Below, piece by piece: positions 10,971 through 63,402 of a stretch of 64,000 nt of DNA (the first letter of the stretch is position 1; every line of letters starts with the position of its first letter). The position numbers and the translations under genes were made by a program. The stretch is from Antrihabitans stalagmiti (GTDB lineage Bacteria > Actinomycetota > Actinomycetes > Mycobacteriales > Mycobacteriaceae): the NCBI RefSeq assembly GCF_016482825.1, contig NZ_JAEMNV010000002.1, positions 868,001 to 932,000 on the forward strand, in the 5' to 3' direction. The notes under the pieces are model-generated. The model saw only the letters and a list, made by a program, of their open reading frames with translations. It had not been told where the DNA came from and did no database searches.

Positions 10971-11465
10971 ATGACACGGCGAGTACTGATCCTCATGCGG
11001 CACGGCAAGTCCGCATATCCGACCGGGATCGGAGATCACGAGCGTCCCCTCGCACCTCGTGGGCAACGCGAAGCCGCACTTGCCGGCGACTGGTTGCGAG
11101 AGCATCAACCGCCCGTCGACGGGATCCTGTGCTCGACATCGCTGCGCACTCGGGAGACGTTGATCGCGACCAAGCTAGACGCCCCGACCCGCTTCGACGA
11201 GACGATCTACGGCGCATCGCCGCATCAACTGATCGATCTTGTGCACGGTGTCGACGACGCTGTTTCGACGCTGCTGATCCTCGGCCATGCGCCCGGCATG
11301 CCGTACACCACATGGGAACTGGCCTCGAATCGCAGTTCGCCGCCCGCCGAGCAGGTCAGCAAGAAGTTCCCCACCTCTGCGCTGGCGATCCTGGAATTCG
11401 ATCTGCCGTGGGACCAGCTCGATACCGGCCTCGCCGAGCTGGTTGCGTTTCATATTCCAAGATAG
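10971..11465 (+). CDS. sixA: SixA-type histidine phosphatase
   Basis: The 164-residue histidine phosphatase superfamily protein has the catalytic RHG motif at residues 10-12 (LMRHGKS) and the second histidine, His106, in LGHAPG. SixA proteins dephosphorylate phosphohistidine proteins, classically an HPt domain. It lies directly upstream of xylB. In C. glutamicum a sixA-like gene is likewise part of the mtlD-sixA-xylB arabitol/mannitol operon, so linkage to polyol catabolism is conserved, though its role there is unclear to me. Its TAG stop forms the left end of the palindromic repeat at 11463-11539. Confidence 0.85.
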   Translation: MTRRVLILMRHGKSAYPTGIGDHERPLAPRGQREAALAGDWLREHQPPVDGILCSTSLRTRETLIATKLDAPTRFDETIYGASPHQLIDLVHGVDDAVSTLLILGHAPGMPYTTWELASNRSSPPAEQVSKKFPTSALAILEFDLPWDQLDTGLAELVAFHIPR

Positions 11466-11539
11466 GGCGCTCCGCGCCTCGTGAGTCTTTTCTTCAGGTT
11501 CTGACCTCCGAAAAGACTCACGAGCGGCGGAGCCGCCTA
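11463..11539. repeat. Palindromic stop-codon repeat, copy A
   Basis: A long inverted repeat with perfect 15-bp arms, CTCGTGAGTCTTTTC (11478-11492) and its complement (11510-11524). Outer GC-rich arms run from TAG (sixA's stop, 11463-11465) to CTA (11537-11539). The same element recurs at 23236, 52686 and 63329. Here it separates two co-directional genes, sixA and xylB, unlike the other copies. It could act as a terminator or a small mobile repeat. Confidence 0.85.
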
Positions 11540-11549
11540 CGCTCGTGGG

Positions 11550-12956
11550 GTGACTCTCGTCGCCGGTATCGATTCGTCCACACAGTCGTGCAAGGTCGTC
11601 GTCCGCGACGCCGAGACCGGCGCCCTCGTGCGCTCTGGACGGGCCAAACACCCGCCCGGCACCGAGGTCGACCCACAGCACTGGGCGGACGCAATGGCCG
11701 AGGCTGTCGCCGACGCGGGCGGCCTCGACGACGTCGACGCCATCTCTGTCGGAGCGCAACAACACGGCATGATCTGCCTCGACGCCGAGGGCTCCGTCGT
11801 CCGGCCCGCACTGCTGTGGAACGACACCCGCTCGGCCTCCTCGGCAACAGACCTCATCGATGACCTCGGTGGCGCGCAGGCCTGGACCGACGCGGTCGGG
11901 GTGGTTCCAGTCGCCGCGATCACGGCCGCCAAACTGCGCTGGCTCGCCGACAACGAACCCGACGCCGCCGACCGGACCGCAGCGGTCTGCCTGCCGCACG
12001 ACTGGCTGACCTGGCAGCTCTCGGGCGCTACGGGTCTGGACACGTTGACGACCGACCGCGGCGACGCGAGCGGCACCGGCTACTTCTCGGCCGCGACGAA
12101 CGCCTACCGAACCGATCTGCTGAGTCTCGCTCTGCGCGGACGCGAACCACTGCTACCTCGGGTCGCGGGTCCGTCGGAGGTGGTCGGCCGGGCGTCGTCG
12201 AAGGGCGCGGCACTCGGGCCGGGGACCGGCGACAACGCCGCGGCAGCTCTCGCCCTCGATGCCCGCGACGGCGACGTCGTCGTATCGATCGGAACGTCCG
12301 GTGTGGTGTCCGCCGTCTCGACGGTGACACCGAACGATGCCTCGGGTGAGGTCGCCGCGTTCGCCGACGCAACTGGACGACAACTGCCACTGCTGTGCAC
12401 GCTCAACGGTGCGCCGGTGCTCGACGCGATGGCAAAGCTGCTCGGCGTAGACCATGCTCGTTTGGCAGAGCTGGCGTTGTCCTCGGCGAGCGAAGGCTTG
12501 GTGCTGGTTCCTTTTCTCGAAGGTGAGCGAACCCCCAATCGTCCTGCCGCAACCGGCGCGATACACGGACTACGACAACATAATTCGACTCCAGGCCATC
12601 TCGCCAGGGCCGCGGTGGAAGGACTGTTGTGCGGGCTGGCAGACGGCATCGATCGACTGCGGCACCTGGGGGTGCGGACCGACCGCGTGCTGCTGGTCGG
12701 CGGCGGCGCGCGCTCTCGAGCGATTTGTGAACTCGCGCCAACGATTTTCGGTGTTCCCGTCGCCGTTCCAGAACCGGGCGAATACGTCGCCGATGGCGCT
12801 GCGCGACAAGCTGCGTGGGCACTGTCCGGCGACGCGGAACCGCCGAGCTGGACGCACGCGACGGCGACCGTGTACGAGGGTGTCGCGACGCCCGAGATCA
12901 GGGATCGGTACTCGTCGGTCCGCGAGCTGACCGACGGTTCGCCGCTACTCGGCTAG
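11550..12956 (+). CDS. xylB: Xylulokinase
   Basis: The 468-residue FGGY-family carbohydrate kinase starts with the phosphate-binding [11 protein letters not shown]. It has the substrate segment VGAQQHGM, the catalytic aspartate Asp228 in [10 protein letters not shown], and the adenosine motif LLVGGGARS near residue 388. QHGM and overall length fit xylulokinase, which phosphorylates D-xylulose to enter the pentose phosphate pathway. With the convergent mannitol/arabitol-type dehydrogenase it makes a polyol-to-ketose-phosphate route. The GTG start at 11550 is 10 bp after the palindromic repeat and has no clear ribosome site. Its 3' end overlaps mtlD by 12 bp. Confidence 0.9.
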
Positions 12957-14447
12957 CTGTGCCACCGTCGCTCGCGCACCGATTGTGTGCAGCGAGTCGA
13001 GGCCGGCCAGATATGCCTCGACGAACCTTGGCTCATCGATCAGGTCGCCGAACACCGCCCGATCGGTGAGGAATGCCGTGGGGTCCTCGTGTTGCGATGC
13101 GGCGAGCGGCATCAGTCGATCGCGCAATTGGTCGACGATGGTGATCGGTTCACCTTGCTCGTCCACGCCCTCCGCATATCGTGCCCAACTTGCCACAACC
13201 GCTGCCGCGCAGGTGATCTCGCCACCGGTCTCGAGCTGGTGCCTGATGACCGGCAGCAGCCACTTCGGAATCCGGTCGGACGATTCGGCACACAGCCGGG
13301 CGACGGTGTCGCGCACGGACGCATTGGAGAAGCGCTCGATCAGGGTGTGCTTGTATTCGTCGAGATCGACGCCGGGTACGGGCCGCAATGTCGGCGTCGC
13401 CTCGTTGTCCATGTACCGCAACAGGAATCGCGCGAAGAGCGGATCCTGGGCGACCTCGTGCACAAGTCGGTAGCCACTCAGATAGCCGAAGTAGCACATG
13501 GACTGATGGCTGGCGTTGAGCAACCTGAGTTTCATCAACTCGTACGGCGCGACATCGTCGACGAGTTGCACACCGACACTGTCGAAGTCGGGGCGACCCA
13601 GTGTGAAGGAGTCTTCGAGCACCCATTGGGTGAACGGTTCGGTAGCCACCGGCCAGGCATCGTCGATGCCATACCGCTCTGCGACTTCCGCGGTCGTCGC
13701 AGCCGTCGTCGCCGGCGTGATGCGGTCGACCATCGAGTTCGGAAACGCGCCCTCGGTCTCGATCCAGTCTGCGAGATCGGGGTCTCGCAGCCGTGCGAAC
13801 GCCGTGAACGTCGACCGCGCGATGTGGCCGTTGCCCTCGATGTTGTCGCAGGACATGATCGTGAACGGAGGGAGACCGCGCGCCCGACGGCGAGCGAGCG
13901 CCTCGATGACGTAGCCGAAAGTTGTTGCAGGGACGGCATTCGGCACCAGGTCGGCAACGATCGCCGGATTGTCCGCGTCGAACTCGCCCGTCGTCGCCGA
14001 GAAGTTGTAGCCGCCTTCAGTGATGGTCAAGGAGACGATGCGGGTCGCCTCGTTCGCCATCGTCGCGATCACCTTCTCCGGATCGTCCGGAGCATAGAGG
14101 TATTCGACGATCGACCCGATCACGCGCGCCGTCCACGAACCGTCGGGAGCAGTCACCGCCAGCGTGTAGAGGCAGTCCTGCGCGGCCAGCACGTCGCGCA
14201 TAGTTCGATCCGACGGGAGTACACCGACCCCGCAGATGCCCCAGTCCCGAGCGCCGCCGCGTTCGAGCAGCGCATCGACGTACATCGCCTGGTGTGCACG
14301 ATGGAAACCACCGACGCCGAAATGCACTATGCCGACCGTGATCTCGGACCGGTCGTAGGTCGGCACCGACACCGAATCGGCGAACTGCGCGACCGACTTT
14401 GCGTCGAGTCGCACCGAACCCGACTTTCGATCGACCACCGCGGCCAT
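12945..14447 (-). CDS. mtlD: Mannitol 2-dehydrogenase-type polyol dehydrogenase
   Basis: The 500-residue protein is a polyol-specific long-chain dehydrogenase. An N-terminal nucleotide-binding region [15 protein letters not shown] is followed by the catalytic KxxxxNxxH signature, here Lys306, Asn311 and His314, equivalent to the catalytic set of Pseudomonas mannitol 2-dehydrogenase. It would oxidise D-mannitol to fructose and probably D-arabinitol to xylulose with NAD. The latter would feed xylB directly. The start ATG follows the upstream dehydrogenase stop by 2 bp, with GGGAGG inside that gene, so they form an operon. Confidence 0.9.
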
Positions 14448-14449
14448 TG

Positions 14450-15502
14450 CTACCTCCCTGCTACATCGACGACTGCTTTGATACTGCCTTCGATCCGGTC
14501 AGCGGCGAGCGCGTCGGCGACCTGATCGAGGGTGAATCTGTGCGTGACCATCGAGTCCAGATCGACGGACCCCGCCTCCACGAGTTCACGGGCCGTCGGC
14601 CAGGTGTTGGCATATCGAAACACACCGGTGAGGACCAACTCTCGGGTTTGCAGCAACGACACCGGCATCGACAGCTCGTCGGCGCCCATTCCGACGAGCA
14701 CGACGGTCCCAGCCGGACGCACGGCATGCATGCCGTCGACGACGGCTCGCGGGGCACCCGATGCGTCGATGAAGGCGTCGACCCGCAGCGCGCGAACATC
14801 AGCGGTGAGCGGATCGAGGACCTCGTGTGCGCCGAACCGTGTCGCGGCCGTTCGCCGACTCGGATCGGGGTCGGAAACGACAACTCGCGTCGCTCCGAAA
14901 GCTCTGACTACCTGCAGCGTCACCAACCCGACCGGCCCGGCCCCTGCAATCAAAACGTGCGCGCCTGCGACGACACCCGCCTTACGGACAGCGGCGATTC
15001 CCACCGAAAGGGGTTCGAACAGAGCCGCCGCGTCGTCGCTGATCGAGTCCGGAATTCGATGTGCAAACGACGACTGAATCGTGACGAACTCGCACAGCGC
15101 ACCGTCGACCGGCGGGGTTGCGTAGAACTTCATGTGTGGACACAGGTTGTACCGGCCTGACCGCGACTCCTCGGAGGTCGGATCGGGGTGCTGTGGCTCG
15201 ATCGAGACACGCTGACCGATCCGCTCGCCATCGACCTCGGAACCAACCGCGACGATCCTGCCTGCTGCCTCGTGACCGAGTATCAGGGGCGATTCGACGA
15301 CGTACTCGCCGATTCGGCCGTGCCGGAAGTAGTGCGCGTCGGATCCGCAGACACCCACAGAACTGACTCTGACCAGTACCTCGTCACGCGCGGGCCGTGG
15401 CGTCGGGCGCTCCTGAAGCTCGATGACGCCGGGCGCCATCAGCACGCTTGCACGCATCGTTCTCGGCGGCGACTCCGGCGGAGAGAGTGTTGTGTACGTC
15501 AC
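14450..15502 (-). CDS. Zinc-dependent sorbitol/xylitol dehydrogenase-like MDR enzyme
   Basis: The 350-residue medium-chain alcohol dehydrogenase has catalytic zinc ligands Cys52 (VGVCGSD), His77 and Glu78 (LGHEAAG). The NAD-binding motif is GAGPVGLVTLQV. The four-cysteine structural zinc loop is absent, as in sorbitol dehydrogenases. It would oxidise a polyol such as sorbitol, xylitol or ribitol to a ketose. The GTG at 15502 gives an N-terminal extension; ATG 15457 (MRASVLMAPG) is an alternative start closer to the family norm, and neither has a strong ribosome site. It is divergent from the SorC regulator, which probably controls it. Confidence 0.87.
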   Translation of the reverse strand: MTYTTLSPPESPPRTMRASVLMAPGVIELQERPTPRPARDEVLVRVSSVGVCGSDAHYFRHGRIGEYVVESPLILGHEAAGRIVAVGSEVDGERIGQRVSIEPQHPDPTSEESRSGRYNLCPHMKFYATPPVDGALCEFVTIQSSFAHRIPDSISDDAAALFEPLSVGIAAVRKAGVVAGAHVLIAGAGPVGLVTLQVVRAFGATRVVVSDPDPSRRTAATRFGAHEVLDPLTADVRALRVDAFIDASGAPRAVVDGMHAVRPAGTVVLVGMGADELSMPVSLLQTRELVLTGVFRYANTWPTARELVEAGSVDLDSMVTHRFTLDQVADALAADRIEGSIKAVVDVAGR

Positions 15503-15528
15503 ATTCTGATGTTAGCGTACGAGAGCAA

Positions 15529-15564
15529 GCGTTCACGACCTGAGCATTTGCTCACCGCGAACGC
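15529..15564. promoter_or_regulatory. Nested inverted repeats, probable SorC-regulator operator
   Basis: The dyad TGAGCA-TT-TGCTCA (15541-15554) sits inside an outer dyad GCGTTC (15529-15534) / GAACGC (15559-15564) that shares its centre to within 1 bp. The site lies in the 83-bp space between the divergent dehydrogenase and regulator genes, so one bound protein could control both directions. Confidence 0.55.
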
Positions 15565-15585
15565 GAAACTCGACGAGGAGTGCGT

Positions 15586-23178: not shown

Positions 23179-23234
23179 AAGCCAAGGCGAAAGCCCCCCA
23201 GTCCCTTCGGGATTGGGGGGCTTTTGCTTGGCTT
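23179..23234. terminator. Bidirectional terminator between aldo/keto reductase gene and rpoC
   Basis: AAGCCAAG (23179-23186) and AGCCCCCCA pair with TGGGGGGCT and CTTGGCTT (ending 23234) around a TTCG tetraloop, with CTTTT on the plus strand and an A-rich side serving the minus strand. It can stop transcription from both convergent genes and is immediately followed by palindromic repeat copy B. Confidence 0.85.
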
Positions 23235-23235: not shown

Positions 23236-23297
23236 GCTCGTGAGTCTTTTCGGAGGCCCTAACCTCCAAAAAGACTCACAAGCGGCGAAGCCGCCTA
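23236..23297. repeat. Palindromic stop-codon repeat, copy B
   Basis: Left arm 23236-23256 (GCTCGTGAGTCTTTT then GGAGG) pairs with 23263-23283. The right outer arm GGCGAAGCCGCCTA ends with CTA (23295-23297), which is rpoC's TAG stop. The left outer arm is shortened compared with copies C and D, and a separate terminator hairpin sits next to it. Confidence 0.85.
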
Positions 23298-26200
23298 GCG
23301 GAAATCGTTGCTGAAGCCGTAGTCGTCCAACGGAACCGCAGCACCCGTTCCGGAGCCGAAGCCCTCGGGCGAGTAGTACTGGTCGTCGTAGGACGGCACC
23401 GCGTACGCGGCCGCACGTGCCTCTTCGGTCGGCTGAACCTGGATGTTGCGGTAACGGTTGATACCGGTACCGGCAGGAATCAGCTTGCCGATGATCACGT
23501 TTTCCTTCAGACCGATCAGCTTGTCGCTGCGGCAGTTGATCGCCGCATCGGTGAGCACACGAGTGGTCTCCTGGAACGACGCTGCCGAGAGCCACGAATC
23601 CGTCGCGAGCGACGCCTTCGTGATACCCATCAGCACCGGACGACCTGCCGCGGGCTCAGCACCCTCGGCAACGACGCGACGGTTGCTCGCCTCGAACTCG
23701 GCACGCTCGGTGAGCGAACCAGGCAGGAACTCGGTGGCACCCGAATCGATGATCGTCACGCGACGCAGCATCTGGCGAACGATCACCTCGATGTGCTTGT
23801 CGTGGATCGACACACCCTGGCTCCGGTACACCTCCTGGACCTCGTTGACGAGGTGGATCTGCACCTGGCGGGGTCCCATGACACGCAGGACCTCGTGCGG
23901 ATCCGCCGAGCCTTCCAGCAACTGCTGGCCGACCTCGACATGGTCGCCGTCCGAGAGCAGACGCTCGGAGCCGTCGTCGTGCTTGAAGACACGCAGACGT
24001 TGCCGCTTCGAGAGCTTGTCGTAGACAACTTCCTCGCCACCGTCATCCGGGATGATGGTGATCTTGTAGAAGCGATCGTCGTCCTCGAGGCGGACCCGTC
24101 CGGACACATCGGCAATCGGAGCCTTGCCCTTCGGCACACGAGCTTCGAAGAGCTCCTGCACACGAGGCAGACCGCCCGTGATGTCCTCGCCGGCCACACC
24201 ACCCTGGTGGAAGGTACGCATGGTCAGCTGGGTACCGGGCTCACCGATCGACTGAGCGGCGACGATGCCGACCGCTTCGCCGATGTCGACGAGCTTGCCT
24301 GTTGCCATCGAGCGGCCGTAACACGTTGCGCAGACGCCCGTGCCCGTGGTGCAGGTGAGCACGGAGCGCACCTTCACCTGGGTGATACCGGCTGCCAGGA
24401 GCGCGTCGATCGCGGGATCGCCGAGATCGGCGCCACGCTCGACGACAACGTTGCCTGCCGCGTCGACCGCATTCGCGGCCAACGTACGGGCGTAGGTGCT
24501 GGTCTCGACATGTGCGTCGCGAACCAGTGAACCGTCGGCCTGCTTCTCGGCGATGTGCGTCGTGATGCCACGCTCGGTGCCACAGTCGTGCTCGCGCACG
24601 ATGACGTCCTGCGACACGTCGACCAGACGACGGGTCAGGTAACCCGAGTCCGCGGTACGAAGCGCGGTGTCGGCCAGACCCTTACGAGCACCGTGGGTAT
24701 TGATGAAGTACTCGAGAACGGTCAGGCCTTCCTTGAAGGAAGACTTGATCGGACGCGGGATGAACTCACCCTTCGGGTTCGTCACCAGACCCTTCATGCC
24801 CGCCAGCGACCGAACCTGAGTCATGTTGCCGGCAGCGCCGGACTTCACGATGATCGGGATCGGGTTGTCGTCGGGGTAGTGCGCCTCCATGGCCTTACCG
24901 ACCTCGTCGGTCGCCTCGGTCCAGATCTTGACCAACGCGCTGTTGCGCTCCGTGTGGTTGAGAGCACCACGCTGGTACTTGCGCTCGATCTGATCGGCCT
25001 GCGCCTCGAACGCCTCCATGATGGCCGGCTTCTCCGGCGGAACCAGAACGTCGGACATCGAGATCGTGACACCCGAACGTGTGGCCCAGTAGAAACCGGC
25101 GTCCTTGAGCTTGTCGACGGTCTGCGCAACCACGATCATCGGGTAGCGCTCGGCGAGATCGTTGATGATCGTCGCCTGACGCTTCTTCGGCATCTGCTCG
25201 TTGACGAACGGGTAGTCGGCCGGAAGCAGCTCGTTGAAGAGCACACGTCCGAGCGTCGTTTCCGCCGTCCACGCGTCGCCGCGTCGCCAGCCCTCGGGGA
25301 ACAGCTTGTCCTCGATTTCGCGGGACGGACGCTGCTGGGTCAGGCGGACCTTGATGGCCGCTCGAACCGACAGCGCGCCACGATCGACGGCCATCTGTGC
25401 CTCGGCGGGCGAGGAGTACGCACCCGTCTCCGGCAGGTCGGTGCCTGCCGCGGTGTACGAACCGACCGCGTCGTCCTGCAGACGGGTCAGGTGGTACAGA
25501 CCCGTCACCATGTCCAGACGCGGCATGGCCAACGGACGACCCGATGCCGGCGAGAGGATGTTGTTCGACGACAGCATCAGGATGCGCGCCTCGGCCTGAG
25601 CCTCGGCGGACAGCGGAAGGTGCACGGCCATCTGGTCACCGTCGAAGTCGGCGTTGAACGCCTCACAGACGAGCGGGTGCAGCTGAATTGCCTTGCCTTC
25701 GACCAACTGTGGCTCGAATGCCTGAATACCCAAGCGGTGCAGCGTAGGTGCGCGGTTCAGCAGCACAGGGTGCTCGGCGATGACCTCTTCGAGGACATCC
25801 CACACCTGCGAACGCTGACGCTCGACCATGCGCTTTGCCGACTTGATGTTCTGCGCGTGGTTGAGATCGACCAGTCGCTTCATCACGAACGGCTTGAACA
25901 GCTCGAGTGCCATCAGCTTCGGCAGACCACACTGGTGCAGCTTCAGCTGAGGACCGACGACGATCACGGAACGACCCGAGTAGTCGACGCGCTTACCGAG
26001 CAGGTTCTGACGGAATCGACCCTGCTTGCCCTTGAGCAGATCGCTCAGGGACTTCAGCGGGCGGTTACCCGGACCGGTGACCGGACGTCCACGACGACCG
26101 TTGTCGAACAGTGCGTCGACGGACTCCTGCAACATCCGCTTCTCGTTGTTGACGATGATCTCGGGAGCACCGAGATCGATCAGTCGCTTGAGGCGGTTGT

Positions 26201-27251
26201 TGCGGTTGATCACGCGGCGGTACAGATCGTTGAGGTCGGACGTCGCGAAACGGCCACCGTCGAGCTGAACCATCGGACGTAGCTCCGGCGGGATCACCGG
26301 GACAGCGTCGAGAACCATGCCCATCGGCGAGTTGCCCGACATCTGGAAGGCCGCAACGACCTTCAGACGCTTGAGCGCACGCAGCTTCTTCTGGCCCTTG
26401 CCGCTACGGATGGTCTCCCTGAGGATCTCCGCTTCGGCGTGGATGTCGAAGTTCTGCATCAGCTTCTGGATGGACTCCGCGCCCATCGCGCCGGTGAAGT
26501 ACTCGCCGTAGCGGTCGATCAGCTCACGGTAGAGAACTTCGTCGACGATGAGCTGCTTCGGAGACAGCTTGACGAAGGTGCTCCAGATCTCGTCGAGACG
26601 ATCCAGCTCGCGCTGTGAACGGTCGCGCAGCTGACGCATTTCGCGCTCGCCGCCGTCCTTCACCTTGCGACGAACATCGGACTTCGCGCCCTCTGCTTCG
26701 AGTTCGGCGAGATCGGCTTCGAGCTTCTGCGCACGAGCCTCCAGATCGGCATCGCGCTGATCGCCGACAGCCTTCTTCTCGACCTCCATCTCGGCTTCGA
26801 GAGTGGAGAGCTCGTTGTGGCGCAGCTCGTCGTCGACGGCCGTGATGACGTACGCGGCGAAGTAGATGATCTTTTCCAGATCCTTCGGCGCGAGGTCGAG
26901 CAGGTAGCCCAACCGCGACGGCACACCCTTGAAGTACCAGATGTGCGTGACCGGAGCGGCGAGCTCGATATGGCCCATCCGTTCGCGGCGAACCTTCGCA
27001 CGGGTCACCTCGACGCCGCAGCGCTCACAGATGATGCCCTTGAAGCGCACGCGCTTGTACTTGCCGCAGTAGCATTCCCAGTCCCTTGTGGGACCGAAGA
27101 TCTTCTCGCAGAACAAGCCGTCCTTCTCTGGCTTGAGCGTGCGGTAGTTGATGGTCTCCGGCTTCTTGACCTCACCGAACGACCACTGACGAATATCGTC
27201 AGCGGTAGCAAGGCCGATCCGGAGTTCATCGAAGAAGTTGACGTCTAGCAC
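23295..27251 (-). CDS. rpoC: RNA polymerase beta' subunit
   Basis: The protein is 1318 residues, the usual actinobacterial length. It has the N-terminal zinc finger cysteines (ECYCGKYK...[10 protein letters not shown]), the catalytic magnesium triad NADFDGDQM, and the second zinc-binding region [19 protein letters not shown] long actinobacterial helical insertion after about residue 140 is rich in Glu and Lys. Start GTG 27251 ([10 protein letters not shown]) agrees with mycobacterial RpoC and has AAAGGAAG upstream. It lies 111 bp downstream of rpoB, with a notable hairpin between them. The TAG stop belongs to a palindromic repeat. Confidence 0.99.
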
Positions 27252-27309
27252 GTAACTTCCTTTCCCCTGTACGGGTTCAGTTGCTGCAAATTCTCAAAGT
27301 TGCGGTGAA

Positions 27310-27354
27310 CCGATGTGGCATTCGTCCCGGTAAGCGGTGCGAATGCCACATCGG
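27310..27354. repeat. 15-bp-arm hairpin in the rpoB-rpoC spacer
   Basis: CCGATGTGGCATTCG (27310-27324) is perfectly repeated in inverted orientation at 27340-27354, with a 15-nt loop, all within the 111-bp rpoB-rpoC gap. There is no T-run after it, so it does not look like a full terminator. Its loop and right arm resemble the repeats at 41.4-41.7 kb (about 22 of 30 positions). Confidence 0.8.
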
Positions 27355-27362
27355 CACACGTC

Positions 27363-41291: not shown

Positions 41292-41790
41292 CCTCGCCTG
41301 CGCTCGGGCGGGGGTTGCCGGGCCTATAGCCGCAGCCTTCCCTCGTCGGCTCGCGCTTCGCGCATCGCTCCTCGGTCCAGGCTGCGCCGGCCCCGCAACC
41401 ATTCACGTGGGGTCGGGGCGCCCCTCACGCTGCTGTACGGCGTCGGTGCCACCCCCACTCCACACAAACCCGGAGCCAATGCGACATCCGTGCCGCCCAG
41501 CGGGACCAGTGCCACATTCGCTCCACCAAACCCGCAACCACACGGCCCCAGGGCGCCCCTCACTCCACCCAGCAGCGTCAGCGCCACCCCCACTCCACAC
41601 AAACCCGGAGCCAATGCGACATTCGCACCGCCACGCGGGACCAGTGCCACATTCGCTCCATCCGATCGCGCGGCCACACGCCGTTCGGTGCGCCGGCGTC
41701 GTCTGGACCGAGGAGCGATGCGCGAAGCGCGAGCCGACGAGGGAAGACGACGTCTAGGGGCGCGCCGAACCCGACCGAGCGCAGGCGAGG
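41292..41790. mobile_element. 0.5-kb repeat element with 44-bp perfect inverted repeat
   Basis: A 44-bp sequence at 41337-41380 is repeated perfectly in inverted orientation at 41703-41746. A further 16-bp pair, CCTCGCCTGCGCTCGG (41292-41307) and its complement (41775-41790), lies outside. Between the arms are two direct copies of about 110 bp with a 135-bp period (ending 41525 and 41660), roughly 85% alike. No transposase is present. It fills the 549-bp gap between yajQ and htpX and may be a non-autonomous element or a decayed insertion. On the minus strand the copies are in one open frame encoding GANVALVP-like repeats, but no ribosome site supports a gene. Confidence 0.6.
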
Positions 41791-51851: not shown

Positions 51852-52688
51852 ATGTCAAAGTACGTCAAGCCGCAGGAACGGCACATTCTCACGGCCAAGG
51901 TCCTCGCATCGAAGCAGATCAGTCCGAACTTCGTTCGCGTCACGGTCGGCGGCGAAGGCCTCGCACAGTTCGCGCCGATGGGCTTCGACCAGTGGTTCCG
52001 CTTCTTCTTCGCCCGCGAGGGCCAGGACGAACTCCGACTCCCCACCAAGGCGAGCAACCTCTGGTACGCGCAGTTCTTGCTGATGAGCAAGGACAGTCGG
52101 CCCGGTGTGCGTAACTACACGGTCCGCAGCTTCCGGGCTGCAGGTGAAGGTCAGTTCGGCGACACGGCCGAGATCGACATCGACTTCGTCACTCACGGCG
52201 ACGCGGCACACGGCGATCTAGGTATCGCGTCCGCGTGGGCGAGCAGCGTCGAGGCAGGCAACGAGGTCGCGCTGCTGGACGAGGGTCTGATCTACAACCC
52301 GGTGGACAACGTGGATTGGCACCTGCTTGCGGGCGACGAGAGCGCGCTGCCTGCGATCGTGGGAATCCTGAACTCAGCGCCGAAGGATGCGCGGATCGAA
52401 GCGTTCATCGAGATTGCACATGCCGACGATGCCCAAGAGATTGCCGGACCCGATGGCGCGAACGTCCACTGGATCGTCCGCAAAGACGCGCACGGTCGTC
52501 CGGGAGCGGAGGTCGTCGAGGCGGTGAAGAAGGCGACGCTGCCAGACGGACCGTGCTACGCATTCTTGGCAGGGGAAAGGGAATTGGCGACAGGCCTTCG
52601 CAGGCACCTCGTCAACGAGCGCCACGTCCCGAAGGCCAACGTGACTTTCACCGGTTACTGGCGCCTCGGCAAGGCAGCGCCGGGCTAG
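51852..52688 (+). CDS. Siderophore-interacting FAD-binding (ferric reductase-like) protein
   Basis: The 278-residue protein is of the SIP/ViuB family. It has an FAD-binding domain with VRNYTVRSFRAAG (RxYT-S FAD motif) and an NAD(P)H-like C-terminal domain with DWHLLAGDESALPAI and YAFLAGERE. These cytoplasmic enzymes reduce ferric siderophores to release iron. The IdeR box immediately upstream supports iron-repressed expression. With the box 4 bp before ATG 51852, the transcript must have a very short leader or none. Its TAG is the left end of repeat copy C. Confidence 0.92.
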   Translation: MSKYVKPQERHILTAKVLASKQISPNFVRVTVGGEGLAQFAPMGFDQWFRFFFAREGQDELRLPTKASNLWYAQFLLMSKDSRPGVRNYTVRSFRAAGEGQFGDTAEIDIDFVTHGDAAHGDLGIASAWASSVEAGNEVALLDEGLIYNPVDNVDWHLLAGDESALPAIVGILNSAPKDARIEAFIEIAHADDAQEIAGPDGANVHWIVRKDAHGRPGAEVVEAVKKATLPDGPCYAFLAGERELATGLRRHLVNERHVPKANVTFTGYWRLGKAAPG

Positions 52689-52761
52689 GCGGCTTCGCCG
52701 GTCGTGAGTCCTTTCGGAGGGTCCCACCTCCGAAAGGACTCACGAGCCGCGGAGCGGCCTA
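52686..52761. repeat. Palindromic stop-codon repeat, copy C
   Basis: A full 76-bp element. The left half starts with TAG (52686-52688, stop of the siderophore protein) and the right half ends with CTA (52759-52761, stop of the convergent gene). Core arms GTCGTGAGTCCTTTCGGAGG and CCTCCGAAAGGACTCACGAG flank a six-base loop. The C/G pair inside the core is changed compensatorily relative to copy A (CTTTTC to CCTTTC on both sides). Confidence 0.88.
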
Positions 52762-53205
52762 TTCCGCGTGACGCTGGACCAACGCACCCAATCGGGGCAG
52801 CGCTTCGATGACGTTCTTCTTGGCCGACGGCCGCATGGACTTGTAGACCTTCTTCGCGGCCTGCCGGCTCGACGCCTCGATCCGCTCGTCGGTGACGCTG
52901 AGCAGCGCATCGGCCACCTCGTCGCCGCGCGCTGCCAGGAAATCGCCGAATTCGCCGCCGCCTGCTGCACCGAAGTCCTGCCAGAACGGCTCCAGGCGAC
53001 CGAAGAATTCGGGCAGCAGCTTCTCGAGCGCCTCGGTGACGATCGACGGGCTGACCTTCTTGACGGCCGCGTAGCCGCCTCGAACGGCGAGACCCGACGC
53101 ACCCTTCTTCTCCGAGACCTCCAAGTCGATCAGTGCGCGCACCTCTGCGATCACGGTGTCGCGACGCGACGAGTCGAGCAACGTTTCTTTCAGTGCTGCA
53201 ACCAC
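52759..53205 (-). CDS. Conserved helical protein, unknown function
   Basis: The 148-residue protein is rich in Ala, Glu, Lys and Arg and appears fully helical, without membrane segments. I know similar unnamed proteins in mycobacteria and relatives but no function. GTG 53205 is chosen because GGAGG lies nine bases upstream; a TTG at 53211 would sit too close to it. It is upstream of the palindromic repeat, which supplies its stop codon. It follows menC on the same strand after 51 bp. Confidence 0.72.
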   Translation of the reverse strand: MVAALKETLLDSSRRDTVIAEVRALIDLEVSEKKGASGLAVRGGYAAVKKVSPSIVTEALEKLLPEFFGRLEPFWQDFGAAGGGEFGDFLAARGDEVADALLSVTDERIEASSRQAAKKVYKSMRPSAKKNVIEALPRLGALVQRHAE

Positions 53206-58107: not shown

Positions 58108-59001
58108 GTGACCTTCAATCCGCAGCTGTGGCGACCCGTTCCGGGATTCGAAAATCTCACCGACATCACCTATCACCGGCACGTCGAGCAGGGCACGGTC
58201 AGAATTGCGTTCGATCGGCCCGACATTCGGAACGCCTTCCGACCGCACACCGTCGACGAGCTCTACCAGGCACTCGACCACGCGCGAATGGCGTCCGACG
58301 TCGGCGTCGTACTGCTCACCGGCAACGGCCCGAGTAGCAAGGACGGCGTCTGGTCGTTCTGCTCCGGCGGCGACCAACGGATCCGCGGACGCAGCGGCTA
58401 CCAGTACGCGAGCGGGGACACCGCCGACACCGTCGACAAGGCGCGCGCAGGCAGGTTGCACATTCTCGAAGTGCAGCGGCTGATCCGGTTCATGCCGAAA
58501 GTGGTCATCGCCCTCGTCAACGGTTGGGCCGCCGGCGGCGGCCATTCGCTCCACGTCGTCTGCGACCTCACACTCGCCAGCCGCGAGCACGCGCGATTCA
58601 AGCAGACCGACGCCGACGTCGGCAGCTTCGACGGTGGCTACGGCAGCGCCTATCTCGCGAAGTTGGTCGGACAGAAATTCGCCCGCGAGATCTTCTTCCT
58701 CGGCCACACCTACACAGCCGACGAGATGCACAACATGGGCGCTGTGAACAAAGTTGTCGACCATGCCGACCTGGAAGACGTCGCACTCGAATGGGGCGCC
58801 GACATCAACGGCAAGTCGCCGCAGGCCCAACGCATGCTCAAGTACGCGTTCAATCTCGCCGACGACGGTCTGGTCGGCCAGCAACTGTTCGCGGGTGAAG
58901 CGACGCGGATGGCGTACATGACCGACGAGGCCGTCGAGGGTCGGGATTCGTTCCTGGAGAAGCGCAAACCCGACTGGTCCCCCTACCCCTGGTACTTCTG
59001 A
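58108..59001 (+). CDS. menB: 1,4-Dihydroxy-2-naphthoyl-CoA synthase
   Basis: The 297-residue crotonase-family enzyme cyclises o-succinylbenzoyl-CoA. Markers are the SGGDQRIRGRSGYQY loop, the oxyanion-hole region GWAAGGGHSLHVVCDLTLAS, the catalytic Asp in TDADVGSFDGGYGS, and the C-terminal PDWSPYPWYF shared by actinobacterial MenB. GTG 58108 matches the family start. It heads a plus-strand run with a hypothetical, a VOC gene and pitA. Confidence 0.96.
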   Translation: MTFNPQLWRPVPGFENLTDITYHRHVEQGTVRIAFDRPDIRNAFRPHTVDELYQALDHARMASDVGVVLLTGNGPSSKDGVWSFCSGGDQRIRGRSGYQYASGDTADTVDKARAGRLHILEVQRLIRFMPKVVIALVNGWAAGGGHSLHVVCDLTLASREHARFKQTDADVGSFDGGYGSAYLAKLVGQKFAREIFFLGHTYTADEMHNMGAVNKVVDHADLEDVALEWGADINGKSPQAQRMLKYAFNLADDGLVGQQLFAGEATRMAYMTDEAVEGRDSFLEKRKPDWSPYPWYF

Positions 59002-59016
59002 GGTAAGACTGAGGGT

Positions 59017-59460
59017 GTGGACCCGCAGAAACCGAACGAGCAACACGTCCGACCCGACGGCGTCACCGACGAGACAGTCGCAGCGGTCGGCAAAGTGTCC
59101 GAAGCGCTGGAGACCATCGAACGTGCACGCGGACATCTCTACGATTTCCATCAGCTGACCGGCCACGCCGACCTACTGCTCGGCGAGGCGGCCGATGCGC
59201 TCGAAGAGGCCGGTCATGCGGCTACAGCGCAGCAGCTGCGCGACGAACTCGTCGGCCGAAACGTCGTCGAAGGTCGCTGGACCTTTCAGTTGGTCGAGGA
59301 GTTCGACGACGGCTACTGGTCGGCGTTTCGCGAGGCGGACAAGCGGATTCGTGACGAACTGCAGGGCGGTAAGCGGCATCTCTTCGAAGCCGAGATGAAG
59401 GAATCGCGACGCACACACGGGCGTCGACACCACGAGGCACGGCCGATCCAGGGAGCTTGA
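59017..59460 (+). CDS. Conserved helical protein, unknown function
   Basis: The 147-residue, helix-rich, charged soluble protein contains RARGHLYDFHQLTGHADLLL and the C-terminal RRTHGRRHHEARPIQ. Unnamed homologues are widespread in actinobacteria as I recall. It starts 15 bp after menB and ends 4 bp before the VOC gene, so it is probably in the menB transcript. No function can be assigned. Confidence 0.75.
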   Translation: MDPQKPNEQHVRPDGVTDETVAAVGKVSEALETIERARGHLYDFHQLTGHADLLLGEAADALEEAGHAATAQQLRDELVGRNVVEGRWTFQLVEEFDDGYWSAFREADKRIRDELQGGKRHLFEAEMKESRRTHGRRHHEARPIQGA

Positions 59461-59464
59461 AGCG

Positions 59465-59857
59465 ATGCAGGTACTCAGCAGCAGAATCATCTTGCGTCCT
59501 GCCGATCACGCACGCACGCTGACCTTCTACCGCGATGTGATCGGCCTTGCCATCGCCCGCGAGTACCCGGGCGGCACCGTGTTCTTCGCCGGTCAAGGCT
59601 TGATCGAGGTCACGTCCTACAGCGGAACCGGAGCGTCGAACTCCTTCGACGGCGCGATTTGGCTTCAGGTCAAGGACCTTGCCAAGGCGCAGAGCGAGCT
59701 GGCAGCGAAGGGAGTCCCCATCGATCGCGAAGCCAAGAAGGAGCCGTGGGGCCTGCGCGAAATGTGGATCACCGACCCCGATGGAGTAAGCATCGTCGTC
59801 GTCCAGATACCCGACGATCATCCTTTGCGACGCGACACACGATCGACTACAACGTGA
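59465..59857 (+). CDS. VOC-superfamily protein (Rv0546c-like)
   Basis: The 130-residue glyoxalase-fold protein has RIILRPADHARTLTFYRDVI and a C-terminal MWITDPDGVSIVVVQIP strand. It corresponds by position to Rv0546c next to pitA in M. tuberculosis. Metal ligands typical of glyoxalase I are not all evident. The start ATG 59465 follows GGAGC closely. Confidence 0.82.
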   Translation: MQVLSSRIILRPADHARTLTFYRDVIGLAIAREYPGGTVFFAGQGLIEVTSYSGTGASNSFDGAIWLQVKDLAKAQSELAAKGVPIDREAKKEPWGLREMWITDPDGVSIVVVQIPDDHPLRRDTRSTTT

Positions 59858-59962
59858 CGTAAACCTCCTGCATATCCGGGCATATCGGTCACTTGGTGGA
59901 CGGCAGATGAACACCCGCGACCCTGGCTGGCTTTCCGCGGATCGAGTACGCACACTAATCGC

Positions 59963-61162
59963 GTGAGCGCTGAACTCCTCGTCCTCTTAATCGTCGTCGT
60001 AACGGCTCTGGCCTTCGACTTCACCAACGGTTTTCACGACACCGCGAATGCGATGGCGACATCGATCGCTACCGGTGCACTCAAACCGAAGGTGGCAGTC
60101 GGTCTTTCCGCTGTTCTCAACCTTGTCGGCGCCTTCCTCTCGGTGGAAGTCGCCGCAACCGTTGCCAAAGGAATAGTCGACCTCAAAACCGTGCAGGGCC
60201 AAGACCTTCTTGTGATCGTCTTCGCCGGACTCGTCGGCGGCATTCTCTGGAACCTCGCAACGTGGCTCTTCGGCATTCCGTCGAGTTCGTCGCACGCGCT
60301 GTTCGGCGGACTCATCGGAGCGACGATTGCGGCACTGGGAACCAGCGGCGTCATCTGGGCGAAGGGCTCCGACGGCGTCGTCAACAAGATCCTCGTTCCC
60401 GCACTGCTCGCTCCCGTGGTCGCCGGCCTCGTCGCCGCGATCGGAACGTTCGCGGTCTACAAGATCACCGATCGCGTCAACGAGAAGAACAAAGAAGAAG
60501 GCTTCCGCTGGGGCCAGATCGGGTCGGCGTCACTCGTCTCGCTGGCGCACGGCACCAACGACGCGCAGAAGACGATGGGCATCATCTTCCTGGCCCTCGT
60601 TGCGCACGGCACCATCAACGGTGATTCGGAGATGCCCTTCTGGGTCAAACTGTCCTGTGCATTGGCAATTGCGCTCGGTACCTACCTCGGCGGCTGGCGA
60701 ATCATTCGCACGCTCGGCAAGGGGCTCGTCGAGATTGCGTCGCCGCAGGGATTCGCGGCTGAATCGTCATCTGCAGCAATCATTTTGACGTCCAGCCACT
60801 TCGGCCTTCCCTTGTCGACCACACAGACGGCGACCGGCTCGATCCTCGGAACCGGCGTCGGCAAGAAGGGCGCGGAGGTCCGGTGGGGCGTTGCGGGTCG
60901 GATGGCCGCCGCGTGGCTGCTCACCCTGCCTGCCGCCGGCATCGTCGGCGCACTCTGCTGGGCCCTCGCTCACGCGATCGGCGGACTCGGTGGCGTGCTC
61001 GTGGTGTTCGGAATCCTCGTCGGGCTGTCGGGCTACATGTACCTGCGCTCGAAGAAGAACCCGGTCGACACCTCGAACGTCAACGAAGACTGGGACGGCG
61101 GACTCACGCCTCCTTCGGAAAAAGTCAAGACGAGCACTCCCGCCGACCCGGCGAACGTCTGA
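59963..61162 (+). CDS. pitA: Low-affinity inorganic phosphate transporter PitA
   Basis: The 399-residue Pit-family transporter has about ten membrane helices. The two family signatures are GFHDTANAMATSIATG near the N-terminus and AHGTNDAQKTMGI in the middle. The C-terminal ~35 residues are soluble and polar. It imports metal-phosphate with protons. It matches Rv0545c by position. The start is GTG 59963. A direct repeat of CATATC (59871-59886) lies in its upstream region. It is followed by three small genes conserved beside it. Confidence 0.94.
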   Translation: MSAELLVLLIVVVTALAFDFTNGFHDTANAMATSIATGALKPKVAVGLSAVLNLVGAFLSVEVAATVAKGIVDLKTVQGQDLLVIVFAGLVGGILWNLATWLFGIPSSSSHALFGGLIGATIAALGTSGVIWAKGSDGVVNKILVPALLAPVVAGLVAAIGTFAVYKITDRVNEKNKEEGFRWGQIGSASLVSLAHGTNDAQKTMGIIFLALVAHGTINGDSEMPFWVKLSCALAIALGTYLGGWRIIRTLGKGLVEIASPQGFAAESSSAAIILTSSHFGLPLSTTQTATGSILGTGVGKKGAEVRWGVAGRMAAAWLLTLPAAGIVGALCWALAHAIGGLGGVLVVFGILVGLSGYMYLRSKKNPVDTSNVNEDWDGGLTPPSEKVKTSTPADPANV

Positions 61163-61180
61163 GAAGGGCGAACGTAGAAC

Positions 61181-61471
61181 ATGGATACTTTCCTCAAAAC
61201 CGTCGACTCGCTGTGGCGCGTTGTCGCCATCGGCCTCGTATTCGGCGCCGGGTTGCCCGTCGTATTCGCCTACGGAATCAAGTTCCTCGCGGTCAACGAG
61301 ATCAACGCAGACGGCACGGTCGGTCGCCGTAATCCGGTGATGGCGTTGGCCGGATCTGCTCTGCTCGCATTGGTCTTGCTCTCCGTCATCGCGGGCGTGC
61401 TTTTCATTGCCAAGGATTTCATCCTCACCAGCTTCGACATCTCCCTCTTCGGGGCAAAGGCGAAAGGATAA
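61181..61471 (+). CDS. Small two-TM membrane protein (Rv0544c-like)
   Basis: The 96-residue protein has two hydrophobic segments (about 12-36 and 53-78) joined by a polar loop with NEINADGTVGRRNP. It lies between pitA and the DUF3349 genes, as Rv0544c does in M. tuberculosis. It could be an accessory of PitA, but only linkage supports this. Confidence 0.8.
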   Translation: MDTFLKTVDSLWRVVAIGLVFGAGLPVVFAYGIKFLAVNEINADGTVGRRNPVMALAGSALLALVLLSVIAGVLFIAKDFILTSFDISLFGAKAKG

Positions 61472-61475
61472 TCAC

Positions 61476-61805
61476 GTGACTGCAGAAGCGAACGCGGAAA
61501 ATCAGTCGATACTCCAGACCGTCATCGGTTGGCTGCGCGCCGGATACCCGCAGGGTGTGCCCCGCGAGGACTACATCGCACTCTTCGCCGTGCTACACCG
61601 TCGGTTGACCGAATTCGAAGTCCGCAAGATCGCCGATCAGTTGATTGCGAATGCTGTCGCCGAAGACGGTGTCATCGAGCGCAGTGAGATCGAGGATGCA
61701 ATTGCGAAAGTCGCGTTGGAGCAGCCCGGCGACGACGATGTCGCACGCGTAGCGTCGCGTTTGGCAGCGGGCGGATGGCCATTGGCCAATCCGTCGGACA
61801 ACTGA
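61476..61805 (+). CDS. DUF3349 protein, first copy
   Basis: The 109-residue protein matches the DUF3349 family (Rv0543c): WLRAGYPQGVPREDYIALFA followed by LTEFEVRKIADQLI and SRLAAGGWPLANP. The small all-helical fold is known from a structure of Rv0543c as I recall; its function is unknown. GTG 61476 starts four bases after the preceding stop codon. A second copy follows immediately. Confidence 0.85.
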   Translation: MTAEANAENQSILQTVIGWLRAGYPQGVPREDYIALFAVLHRRLTEFEVRKIADQLIANAVAEDGVIERSEIEDAIAKVALEQPGDDDVARVASRLAAGGWPLANPSDN

Positions 61806-61815
61806 GCCGCCCGCC

Positions 61816-62130
61816 TTGGCACTTCCGCCATTTCTCGCAAACGTCCTCGGCTGGCTGCGTGCCGGCTATCCCGAGGGCGTGCCGGAAAGGGACTACGTTC
61901 CACTCTTGGCACTACTGACTCGCAAGCTGTCCGACGACGAGGTCGAACAGATCACAACAGCGCTCGTCACGGCGGGCGACCTTCCCATCGACAAGACCGA
62001 CATCCAAGTGATGATCACCAAGATCACCGACGAGATGCCGCTGTCCTCGGATGTGGATCGGGTCAGCTCCAGACTCGCAGCGGGTGGCTGGCCGATTGCC
62101 GATCCGACGACGGATCTCGAATCGCCGTAG
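61816..62130 (+). CDS. DUF3349 protein, second copy
   Basis: The 104-residue paralogue of the upstream gene has the same skeleton, WLRAGYPEGVPERDYVPLLA and SRLAAGGWPIADP, but diverges in the middle. The start appears to be TTG 61816; there is no ribosome site, so translation may be coupled to the upstream gene 10 bp away. Tandem duplication of DUF3349 is a departure from the single Rv0543c. Confidence 0.8.
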   Translation: MALPPFLANVLGWLRAGYPEGVPERDYVPLLALLTRKLSDDEVEQITTALVTAGDLPIDKTDIQVMITKITDEMPLSSDVDRVSSRLAAGGWPIADPTTDLESP

Positions 62131-62182
62131 TCGTGTCAGGCACCCGTCCGTTCCCGACAGCGATGCGTGACACCATCGAAGG

Positions 62183-63331
62183 GTGAGCAACACACTTCGA
62201 ACGCTGGCCGTACCGTCCGGCGATGCCGTTGCCGAGGTGCTTCCTGTCTTGCGAGAAGTATTGGCGGGCACCACATCAGCGGTCCTTCCAGTTCCCGCGG
62301 GTGACCGACGCGAAACCGCTCGGCTCGAGACAGCGCTTGCTTCGGGTGAGCCGATAGACGACGGCGTCGCACTTGTCGTCGCGACGTCCGGAACCACGGG
62401 AACTCCCAAGGGCGCGATGTTGTCGGCAGCCGCATTGCGTGCGAGCGGTACCGCGACACACAAGCGACTCGGTGGAGCCGGCAGCTGGTTGCTTGCGCTG
62501 CCGACCCACCACATCGCCGGACTGCAAGTCCTGTTTCGCGGCATCCTTGCCGGCCTTCCGCCAGTGGTTCTCGATGTCGCCGACGGCTTCGATCCGGCGG
62601 CACTGGCGCCTGCGATCGATGCGATGCCAGGGCCTCGCCGCTACACCTCACTGGTCCCGACGCAACTCGTCAAAGCGCTCGACGACGCTGCGGCCGTTGC
62701 TGCGTTGACGCGCCTCGACGCGGTGCTGCTGGGCGGGGCGGCAACACCGGTCTGGTTGCGCGAGAAGGCAAGCGACGCCGGTATCAATCTGTTCCGGACC
62801 TACGGGATGAGCGAAACCTGCGGCGGTTGTGTCTACAACGGCATTGCCCTCGACGGCGCCCTGGTCGAGATCGAGGACGGCCGCGTCGTTCTCGGCGGGC
62901 CGATGGTTGCCACCGGGTATCGCGGCCTACCCGAGCACCCATCGTTCGCTCGGCAAGGCTGGTTCCGAACCGATGATGGGGGCACGGTGACCGACGGCAT
63001 CCTGACCGTCACTGGACGGTTGGACGAAGCCATCTCGACGGGCGGTCTTACGGTCGTCCCGCAGGTTGTCGAAGCCGCGATTCTCAGCCATCCCGACGTC
63101 CGCGAATGTGCGATCGTCGGTGTCGCGGACCGGCGCCTTGGCGAACGTGTCGTCGTTGCGGTCGTCGCCGCACCCGGCGCGACGCCGTCGTTGCGGGATA
63201 TTCGCGATCACGTTGCGCAAGAGCTCGATTCGACTGCAGCGCCGCGCGAGCTGCTCCTGGTCGATGCACTCCCCCTGCGCGGGCCGGGCAAGGTCGATCG
63301 AGCAGCTGTGCGGGCACTTTTCGAGCACTAG
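62183..63331 (+). CDS. menE: o-Succinylbenzoate-CoA ligase
   Basis: The 382-residue acyl-adenylate ligase is shorter than E. coli MenE, as usual in actinobacteria. The P-loop-like AMP motif is VATSGTTGTPKGAML; further signatures are TYGMSETCGG and the hinge TGRLDEAISTGG. It activates o-succinylbenzoate to its CoA ester for MenB. It corresponds to Rv0542c by position after DUF3349. The start is GTG 62183. Its TAG stop is the left end of repeat copy D. Confidence 0.93.
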   Translation: MSNTLRTLAVPSGDAVAEVLPVLREVLAGTTSAVLPVPAGDRRETARLETALASGEPIDDGVALVVATSGTTGTPKGAMLSAAALRASGTATHKRLGGAGSWLLALPTHHIAGLQVLFRGILAGLPPVVLDVADGFDPAALAPAIDAMPGPRRYTSLVPTQLVKALDDAAAVAALTRLDAVLLGGAATPVWLREKASDAGINLFRTYGMSETCGGCVYNGIALDGALVEIEDGRVVLGGPMVATGYRGLPEHPSFARQGWFRTDDGGTVTDGILTVTGRLDEAISTGGLTVVPQVVEAAILSHPDVRECAIVGVADRRLGERVVVAVVAAPGATPSLRDIRDHVAQELDSTAAPRELLLVDALPLRGPGKVDRAAVRALFEH

Positions 63332-63402
63332 GCGGATCCGCCGCTCGTGCGTCTTTTCGGCGCGCCTGCCCTCCGAAAAGACTCACGAGGCCGAGGGCCC
63401 TA
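63329..63402. repeat. Palindromic stop-codon repeat, copy D
   Basis: The element runs from menE's TAG (63329-63331) to CTA (63400-63402), the stop of the beta-lactamase-like gene. The right core CCTCCGAAAAGACTCACGAG (63370-63389) pairs with the left core CTCGTGCGTCTTTTCGG with one mismatch; the GGAGG part of the left arm is altered to GCGCG. Confidence 0.85.

What the first reader, a model, noticed from the sequence alone, without database searches (positions are those of the whole stretch)
11463..63402. Four-copy palindromic repeat whose ends are the stop codons of flanking genes
Elements of 62-77 bp at 11463-11539, 23236-23297, 52686-52761 and 63329-63402 share a core CTCGTGAGTCTTTTCGGAGG, a short variable loop, and its complement, inside GC-rich outer arms that begin TAGGCGG and end CCGCCTA. 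In copies C and D both ends are used as in-frame stop codons of two convergent genes. In B the right end is rpoC's stop, and in A the left end is sixA's stop. Stem changes are compensatory between copies. This looks like a dispersed bidirectional terminator or a mobile miniature repeat that settles exactly on stop codons, possibly trimming protein C-termini.
Basis: seen in the sequence. Interest (0 to 1): 0.75.

Follow-up and report, generated by a model that had tools for sequence, protein, structure and literature searches.

The report
Three-hairpin repeat capping gene ends
A short DNA repeat that folds into three hairpins occurs in well over a hundred copies in this actinobacterial genome, mostly pressed directly against the stop codons of genes; it behaves like a small mobile element, and what moves it is unknown.

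Summary
The four copies are real and belong to a large family: 420 arm matches in the genome, 0 for the reversed control. The genus is Antrihabitans, not Rhodococcus. The "outer arms" are not parts of one long palindrome: each is a separate mini-hairpin, usually GC(GNA)GC, beside a 19-bp stem with a 6-nt loop. The mini-hairpin stems covary strongly and the two of one element avoid matching each other, so three separate hairpins are kept. Of 145 stop-facing sides, 84 have the stop codon exactly at the hairpin edge (82 TAG), 13 one base away, 28 use a TGA inside the core. Empty orthologous sites in sister species show insertion behind conserved stops, for example rpoC; some other copies are shared. 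The same design with other core sequences matches 86 of 301 family genomes, and some Rhodococcus plasmids. Y1 (REP-type) transposase: none in this genome or in 9 of 10 other carriers. I read it as a REPIN-like mobile palindrome acting as folded single-stranded DNA that settles on stop codons. A role as bidirectional transcript end is possible but not shown. Systematic trimming of proteins is not supported.

The parts
11463..11539 (.). Copy A: TAG 11463-11465 (stop of a SixA-like phosphatase gene), mini-hairpin 11466-11478, left arm 11479-11498 (one base inserted), loop 11499-11504, right arm 11505-11523, mini-hairpin 11524-11536, CTA 11537-11539
23238..23297 (.). Copy B: left arm 23238-23256, loop 23257-23262, right arm 23263-23281, mini-hairpin 23282-23294, CTA 23295-23297 = rpoC stop. 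Left mini-hairpin lost
23190..23224 (.). Intrinsic-terminator-like hairpin beside copy B; three relatives have a terminator-like hairpin 8-12 nt behind rpoC
52686..52761 (.). Copy C: TAG 52686-52688, mini-hairpin about 52690-52700, left arm 52702-52720, loop 52721-52726, right arm 52727-52745, mini-hairpin 52746-52758, CTA 52759-52761; both ends are stops of convergent genes
63329..63402 (.). Copy D: TAG 63329-63331, mini-hairpin 63332-63344, left arm 63345-63363, loop 63364-63369, right arm 63370-63388, mini-hairpin 63389-63399, CTA 63400-63402; both ends are stops of convergent genes
10971..11465 (+). Histidine phosphatase (SixA-like), stop flush with copy A
   Evidence: TIGR00249 below its cut-off
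23295..27251 (-). rpoC, stop flush with copy B
51852..52688 (+). Siderophore-interacting protein family gene, stop flush with copy C
52759..53205 (-). DUF6918 gene, stop flush with copy C
62417..63331 (+). o-succinylbenzoate--CoA ligase (menE-like) gene, stop flush with copy D
63400..63978 (-). Beta-lactamase2-domain gene, stop flush with copy D

Best explanation
A family of short, protein-less mobile palindromes with the architecture of a REPIN in its clover fold: AG + mini-hairpin + 19-bp stem with 6-nt loop + mini-hairpin + CT. Shown: many copies; three hairpins kept by compensatory change and by avoidance of the competing long fold; insertion directly behind existing stop codons at sites that are empty in sister species; the same design in other genera with different stem sequences. 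Inferred: copies spread as folded single-stranded DNA, with the ultrastable GC(GNA)GC mini-hairpins at the ends as recognition feature, moved by a trans-acting enzyme not identified here. Insertion behind the T (or TG) of a stop codon, where the element's own AG restores TAG or TGA, leaves the protein unchanged, which with some preference for TAG would explain the flush stops. Resident copies may also act incidentally as hairpins at the ends of both transcripts.
For: Copies: 211+209 arm matches, control 0; 126 two-armed elements read. Mini-hairpins: the two variable pairs of each have mutual information 0.46-0.68, 0 of 2000 shuffles as high; 186 of 194 perfect triloops are GNA, 178 of 194 have GC(GNA)GC, N takes all four bases. 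GNA loops on two or more G-C pairs are extraordinarily stable as DNA, Tm 78 C for GCGAAGC (passage of PMC4686876). Same stem on both sides in 4 of 59 against 21.2 in shuffles, minimum 10; other genera 1 of 19 against 4.8, 97 of 5000 shuffles as low. Innermost loop pair complementary in 11 of 124 against 54 expected, outermost 41 against 62. Across genera 14 of 19 main-stem pairs change on both sides, 90% of cells paired, 0 of 500 shuffles. Empty sites: rpoC TAG shared by four Antrihabitans genomes, with the element only in this one, between the stop and a terminator hairpin; L130 site with a downstream block conserved in two relatives. Contiguous stretches of relatives: 0 of 12 (G001), 0 of 14 (G003), 0 of 4 (G002) orthologous stops carry it. 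In Rhodococcus sp. DK176 a decayed copy is read in frame inside an NRPS gene. Flush stops agree with depositors' annotation in R. opacus PD630 (both sides) and R. oxybenzonivorans (one side).
Against: No enzyme found: Y1_Tnp absent in the own genome and in 9 of 10 other carriers. No target duplication: left and right flanks of 86 elements with clean edges share no more direct repeats than shuffled pairs. At convergent sites both ends are flush in 41 of 54, which a one-sided insertion does not explain. Some copies are inherited: 8 of 12 orthologous stops in A. stalactiti loci that were fetched because they hold the core also have it, one only as a remnant; one lies at the identical position (L141/L221). 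In this genome the central arms are more conserved in sequence than the mini-hairpins, the reverse of REPINs. The three-hairpin fold is within 1 kcal of the best fold in only 27 of 59 with DNA and 23 of 59 with RNA parameters. The middle loop pair shows no avoidance (80 against 85). The patterns partly reflect common ancestry of the copies.
Confidence: 0.58

Rival explanations
1. A bidirectional transcript-end element (terminator or 3' mRNA stabiliser): the hairpins end or protect both converging transcripts, and selection keeps them next to stop codons.
For: 54 of 124 typed copies lie in convergent gaps against 13 of 64 junctions in the window (p 4e-9), 12 in divergent gaps. A. stalactiti keeps only the long hairpin, 77 of 93 stop-facing sides within -6 to 14 nt, 37 of 63 copies convergent. 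Very stable as RNA. T is raised to 0.31 in the 12 nt behind the 3' mini-hairpin of tandem copies against 0.18 background, though these are also upstream regions of the next gene.
Against: T fraction just after the main stem 0.093, TTTT within 12 nt of the 3' mini-hairpin in 4 of 58 tandem copies. In sense RNA of 57 tandem copies G-U 29 against A-C 24. At rpoC it is added in front of a conserved terminator-like hairpin. Exact distance 0 is not a known terminator property.
Confidence: 0.25
2. A double-stranded DNA binding site: each 19-nt arm is a half-site of a dyad bound by a chromosomal or termination protein; the mini-hairpins are structural extras.
For: In this genome most variable positions of the central arms vary independently while keeping a per-arm consensus (8 of 9).
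Against: Arms of different genera change together in pairs (14 of 19 pairs); mini-hairpins conserve fold rather than sequence; loop and mini-hairpins avoid complementarity, which a duplex site would not need.
Confidence: 0.08
3. True REPINs moved by a RAYT (Y1 tyrosine transposase) that was lost or is too diverged to detect.
For: Half-element reads TAG or GAG + GC-rich hairpin, as many REPs read GTAG + hairpin (Table 1 passages of PMC2817692); inverted doublet with pairing spacer and a clover fold as in PMC3116915 (passages). One carrier, G025, has a short PF01797 match just over the cut-off (25 against 23 bits, positions 60-99 of 121).
Against: No PF01797 match in the own genome and 9 of 10 other carriers, while the control rings in 6 of 14 genomes. 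The fourth base before the hairpin is not fixed as G.
Confidence: 0.08

Closest known systems
REPINs / REP doublets (PMC3116915 and PMC2817692, passages seen)
   Same: Inverted pair of short AG + GC-rich hairpin units, spacer that pairs into a stem, over 100 copies, almost all outside genes, clover or long-hairpin fold; an insertion sequence uses it as landing site, as known for REPs (PMC1525189, abstract seen)
   Different: No RAYT found; flush with stop codons and enriched in convergent gaps; GNA triloops; mini-hairpins conserve fold rather than sequence; central stem sequence differs between genera
MITEs
   Same: Short, non-coding, inverted-repeat, mobile on evolutionary time
   Different: No parent transposon noticed (not searched for) and no target duplication
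Intrinsic terminators
   Same: Stable hairpin close behind stop codons, many in convergent gaps
   Different: No U-tract; near-uniform sequence in all copies; absent at the orthologous ends in the contiguous stretches of sister species compared
Rickettsia palindromic elements (recalled, not tested)
   Same: Palindromes that can lie in frame in coding sequence, as in the Rhodococcus NRPS copy
   Different: Here almost always at gene ends, 1 of 126 inside a gene

Membership tests
REPIN/REP | Two REP-like hairpin units in inverted orientation with pairing spacer | tested here: met
REPIN/REP | GTAG or related tetranucleotide 5' of the hairpin | tested here: not met
   AG kept (116 of 145 stop-facing, 43 of 63 start-facing clean sides) and T or G usual before it, but the fourth base is any of the four (G 35 of 116 and 10 of 43). 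Some listed REPs also deviate
REPIN/REP | RAYT (Y1_Tnp) gene in the genome | tested here: not met
   0 in own genome; 1 short match just over the cut-off in 10 other carriers
REPIN/REP | Random distribution in extragenic space | tested here: not met
   flush with stop codons, convergent enrichment
MITE | Terminal inverted repeats | tested here: met
MITE | Target site duplication | tested here: not met
   86 elements with clean edges, 2-8 nt, five insets: never clearly above shuffled pairs
MITE | Parent transposon with matching ends | not tested
   no dedicated search made
Intrinsic terminator | Stable hairpin behind the stop codon | tested here: met
Intrinsic terminator | U-tract directly after the hairpin | tested here: not met
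Intrinsic terminator | RNA 3' ends at the element | not testable with these tools
   no transcript data
Rfam RNA family | Match to a curated family over its gathering score | tested here: not met
   window: only 4 tRNAs; three loci at E up to 1: two matches far below gathering score, one of them (BTH_s19, 21.2 against 153 bits) over an element

The most novel reading that the evidence does not exclude
A new class of miniature mobile DNA, widespread in this family of Mycobacteriales, that folds into a three-hairpin single-stranded clover, homes to stop codons from which its own AG rebuilds TAG or TGA, and is moved by a system other than the known Y1/RAYT transposases.
Probability: 0.35. Interest if true: 0.82.

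Novelty: new variant of a known kind. Interest (0 to 1): 0.64.

Why it matters
A repeat family with over a hundred copies in this genome, and copies in many relatives including Rhodococcus, matches no Rfam family over its threshold in the sequences tested, and its core returned no paper in the open-access text search. It offers a natural system for three open questions: how transposase-less palindromes spread without a RAYT, how a mobile element can settle at gene ends without changing the protein, and whether such hairpins then become transcript ends.

Tried and rejected
REPIN with RAYT: no Y1_Tnp here. Target duplication: none; a TA duplication is further disfavoured because A of AG is kept on start-facing sides (43 of 63 AG) more than T (18 of 43). 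Element-supplied truncation of proteins: rejected for the distance-0 class. RNA-sense selection on the main stem: no clear G-U bias. Composite cassettes: genes between neighbouring copies in 12 cases were listed; no transposase stood out by eye, no family search was run on them. Plasmids: the Antrihabitans element had no match; a query from a 9.7-Mb genome of the genus of G025 hit 6 Rhodococcus records. Literature: searches listed nothing that, by title and abstract start, describes these elements; most subscription journals are not held. Rows dropped: R1 was built from 22 of the 27 aligned copies; A3 and R2 use 5 own copies and 25 of the 38 rows; one search uses 37 of those 38 (one looked like a chance match).
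Full report
WHAT IS THERE. The four window copies are real. The window lies in a 6.39-Mb genome with 211 forward and 209 reverse matches (up to 3 mismatches) to the 20-nt core, 0 for the reversed control. G001, of the same genus by the tool's kinship, has the contig lengths of Antrihabitans stalactiti YC2-7, so the genus is Antrihabitans. I took 124 element positions from the listed matches, fetched loci, and scanning them gave 126 distinct two-armed elements and 5 single arms, the latter left out of all counts. The total is probably 200-240 (my estimate from arm matches).

ANATOMY. The common frame is AG, a mini-hairpin (usually 5 bp with a 3-nt loop), a 19-nt arm TCGTGMGTCYTTTYGGHGG, a 6-nt loop (124 of 126), the inverted arm, a second mini-hairpin, CT. 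The "outer arms" are thus two separate hairpins. On 252 sides, 194 have a perfect triloop stem of at least 4 bp; 186 of these have GNA loops read outward from the core, 178 have GC(GNA)GC, and N is G 76, T 59, A 42, C 17. The other 58 sides are imperfect or have other loops, 12 of them with CTTG. GNA loops on two or more G-C pairs give extraordinarily stable DNA hairpins, Tm 78 C for GCGAAGC (passage in PMC4686876); that RNA versions are weaker is my recollection only.

SELECTION ON THE FOLD. In the mini-hairpins the two variable pairs change together: mutual information 0.46-0.68 against 0.035-0.049 in shuffles, 0 of 2000 shuffles as high. In the central arms only 1 of 9 variable pairs (position 10) is associated. 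Left and right mini-hairpins avoid matching: same stem in 4 of 59 elements with two perfect 5-3-5 minis, shuffled mean 21.2, minimum 10 of 5000; in other genera 1 of 19 against 4.8, 97 of 5000 shuffles as low. The innermost loop pair is complementary in 11 of 124 against 54 expected, the outermost in 41 against 62, the middle one in 80 against 85. Matching minis would allow one long hairpin, so this favours three hairpins. Copies share ancestry, so part of it is inheritance. Folding programs are mixed: three hairpins within 1 kcal of the best fold in 27 of 59 (DNA) and 23 of 59 (RNA), median deficit 1.7 and 3.6 kcal; single examples.

POSITION. With my own codon-usage ORF caller, contexts are convergent 54, tandem 58, divergent 12, inside a gene 1, one at a locus end. 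Convergent share 54 of 124 against 13 of 64 window junctions, p 4e-9. Of 145 stop-facing sides with a clean mini-hairpin, the stop codon ends at the hairpin edge in 84 (82 TAG), one base before it in 13 (12 TGA), 2-10 nt in 13, more than 10 nt in 5, inside at the core TGA in 28, otherwise inside in 2. Start-facing sides (82) range from -42 to 799 nt. AG stands before the hairpin on 116 of 145 stop-facing and 43 of 63 start-facing clean sides, so AG belongs to the element; T before AG is 85 of 116 against 18 of 43, p 0.0004; the base before that is any of the four. At convergent sites 41 of 54 are flush at both ends, 12 at one, 1 at none (flush = 0, 1, 2, -17 or -19); tandem stop sides 48 of 58. 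47 convergent gaps without element have median 6 nt, 45 of them from -56 to 63. In the loci counted, stops away from elements are TAG in 91 of 314, at elements in 70 of 113.

EVOLUTION. In four Antrihabitans genomes rpoC ends in TAG; only here does the element follow directly, in front of a terminator-like hairpin that lies 8-12 nt behind the stop in relatives. At the L130 site the stop and a downstream block are conserved in two relatives without the element. Over contiguous stretches, orthologous stops with the same core within 90 nt: 0 of 12 in G001, 0 of 14 in G003, 0 of 4 in G002 (several per site, so not independent). At copy C, G003 has a different hairpin of similar plan between the same genes. 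In A. stalactiti loci fetched because they hold the core, 8 of 12 orthologous stops have it, one as a remnant, one at the identical position: part of the set is inherited. Protein tails at distance-0 sites end within 3 residues of both C-termini in 25 of 29 comparisons (hand count). At 13 distance-0 TAG sites, relatives lacking the element have TAG in 14 of 25 cases (one) against 167 of 568 genes, p 0.007 without correction for several relatives per site; at 8 of 13 sites at least one relative has TAG, at 5 none seen has. A. stalactiti has the same core without mini-hairpins: 63 copies, 37 convergent; of 93 stop-facing sides 77 lie within -6 to 14 nt; codons TGA 57, TAG 19, TAA 17 (only copies fitting an exact pattern).

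DISTRIBUTION. Model R1 matches 10 of 61 genomes, own included. The same frame (19-6-19 plus minis) with different arm sequences occurs in several genera; across 30 sequences 90% of cells pair against 69% shuffled, and 14 of 19 main-stem pairs change on both sides. Model R2 matches 86 of 301 family genomes at E 1e-4, own included, tallied as 10 of 31 genera, matches per genome capped, and 5 of 200 genomes drawn over the order at E 1e-5: own, one of the family (G062) and three of other families (G059, G350, G462). Among top-scoring copies of two other genera, clean stop-facing sides lie at -1 to 2 nt in 15 of 19 (G025) and 8 of 10 (G023); -1 there means the G of TAG was counted in the hairpin. 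In G020, 4 of 5 clean sides stop inside instead, and G029 gave one side, at -7. Six Rhodococcus plasmids match a query from the genus of G025. Annotation puts stops flush in R. opacus PD630 (both sides) and R. oxybenzonivorans. In Rhodococcus sp. DK176 a decayed copy is in frame in an NRPS gene; DK17 and DK180 show NRPS under the match in the listing only, and in USK10 it lies in an open frame by my caller.

MECHANISM. Shown: insertion behind stops, three-hairpin constraint, turnover between species, spread over genera. Inferred: movement as folded single-stranded DNA by an unknown enzyme, because ultrastable GNA mini-hairpins are known for DNA and the plan equals a REPIN clover. Not found: the enzyme (no Y1_Tnp), target duplication; not testable: effect on transcripts. 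Against a classical terminator: no U-tract, no clear G-U bias in tandem sense RNA (29 against 24 A-C). Convergent sites flush at both ends remain unexplained by one-sided insertion; overlapping stops, as in A. stalactiti at one such gene pair, are one route, loss or replacement of the short spacer another.

COMPARISON. What it works like: a REPIN or MITE. Membership: it fails REPIN on the RAYT, the tetranucleotide and random extragenic placement, and MITE on target duplication, so I file it as neither. Papers: passages of PMC4686876, PMC2817692, PMC3116915; abstract and outline of PMC1525189; others only as search listings. My confidence in the best explanation fell slightly (0.60 to 0.58) after the formal target-duplication test.

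Noticed in passing
L307-L312 (contig ends of the own genome): All 6 genome matches of one insertion-sequence end (up to 3 mismatches) abut the same point of an element, just past the loop. L311 with L026 suggests a 14-bp target duplication equal to the hairpin apex: an insertion sequence that homes to this repeat.
   Followed up: partly
L305:1501-1575 (Rhodococcus sp. DK176 pDK1): A decayed element is read in frame inside a non-ribosomal peptide synthetase gene; the listing shows the same gene under the match in DK17 and DK180.
   Followed up: partly
L101, L117, L126 beside the element; similar in L119, L121: One mini-hairpin is replaced by a recurring sequence GTAGTAGGTGGAATTGTGGT or a variant of it.
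   Followed up: no
own genome C2:17.7-20.4 kb (L034, L019) against L199: Two elements lie about 2.6 kb apart here, while A. stalactiti has a single element between the orthologues of the two outer genes: possible gain of DNA at an element.
   Followed up: no
window 27305-27359: Another 25-nt inverted repeat beside the rpoB-rpoC gap; A. stalactiti has a palindrome in its rpoB-rpoC gap. Similar sequence recurs at 41610-41652.
   Followed up: no
window 41311-41772: 81-nt inverted repeat (84%) around two 110-nt direct repeats (86%), function unknown.
   Followed up: no
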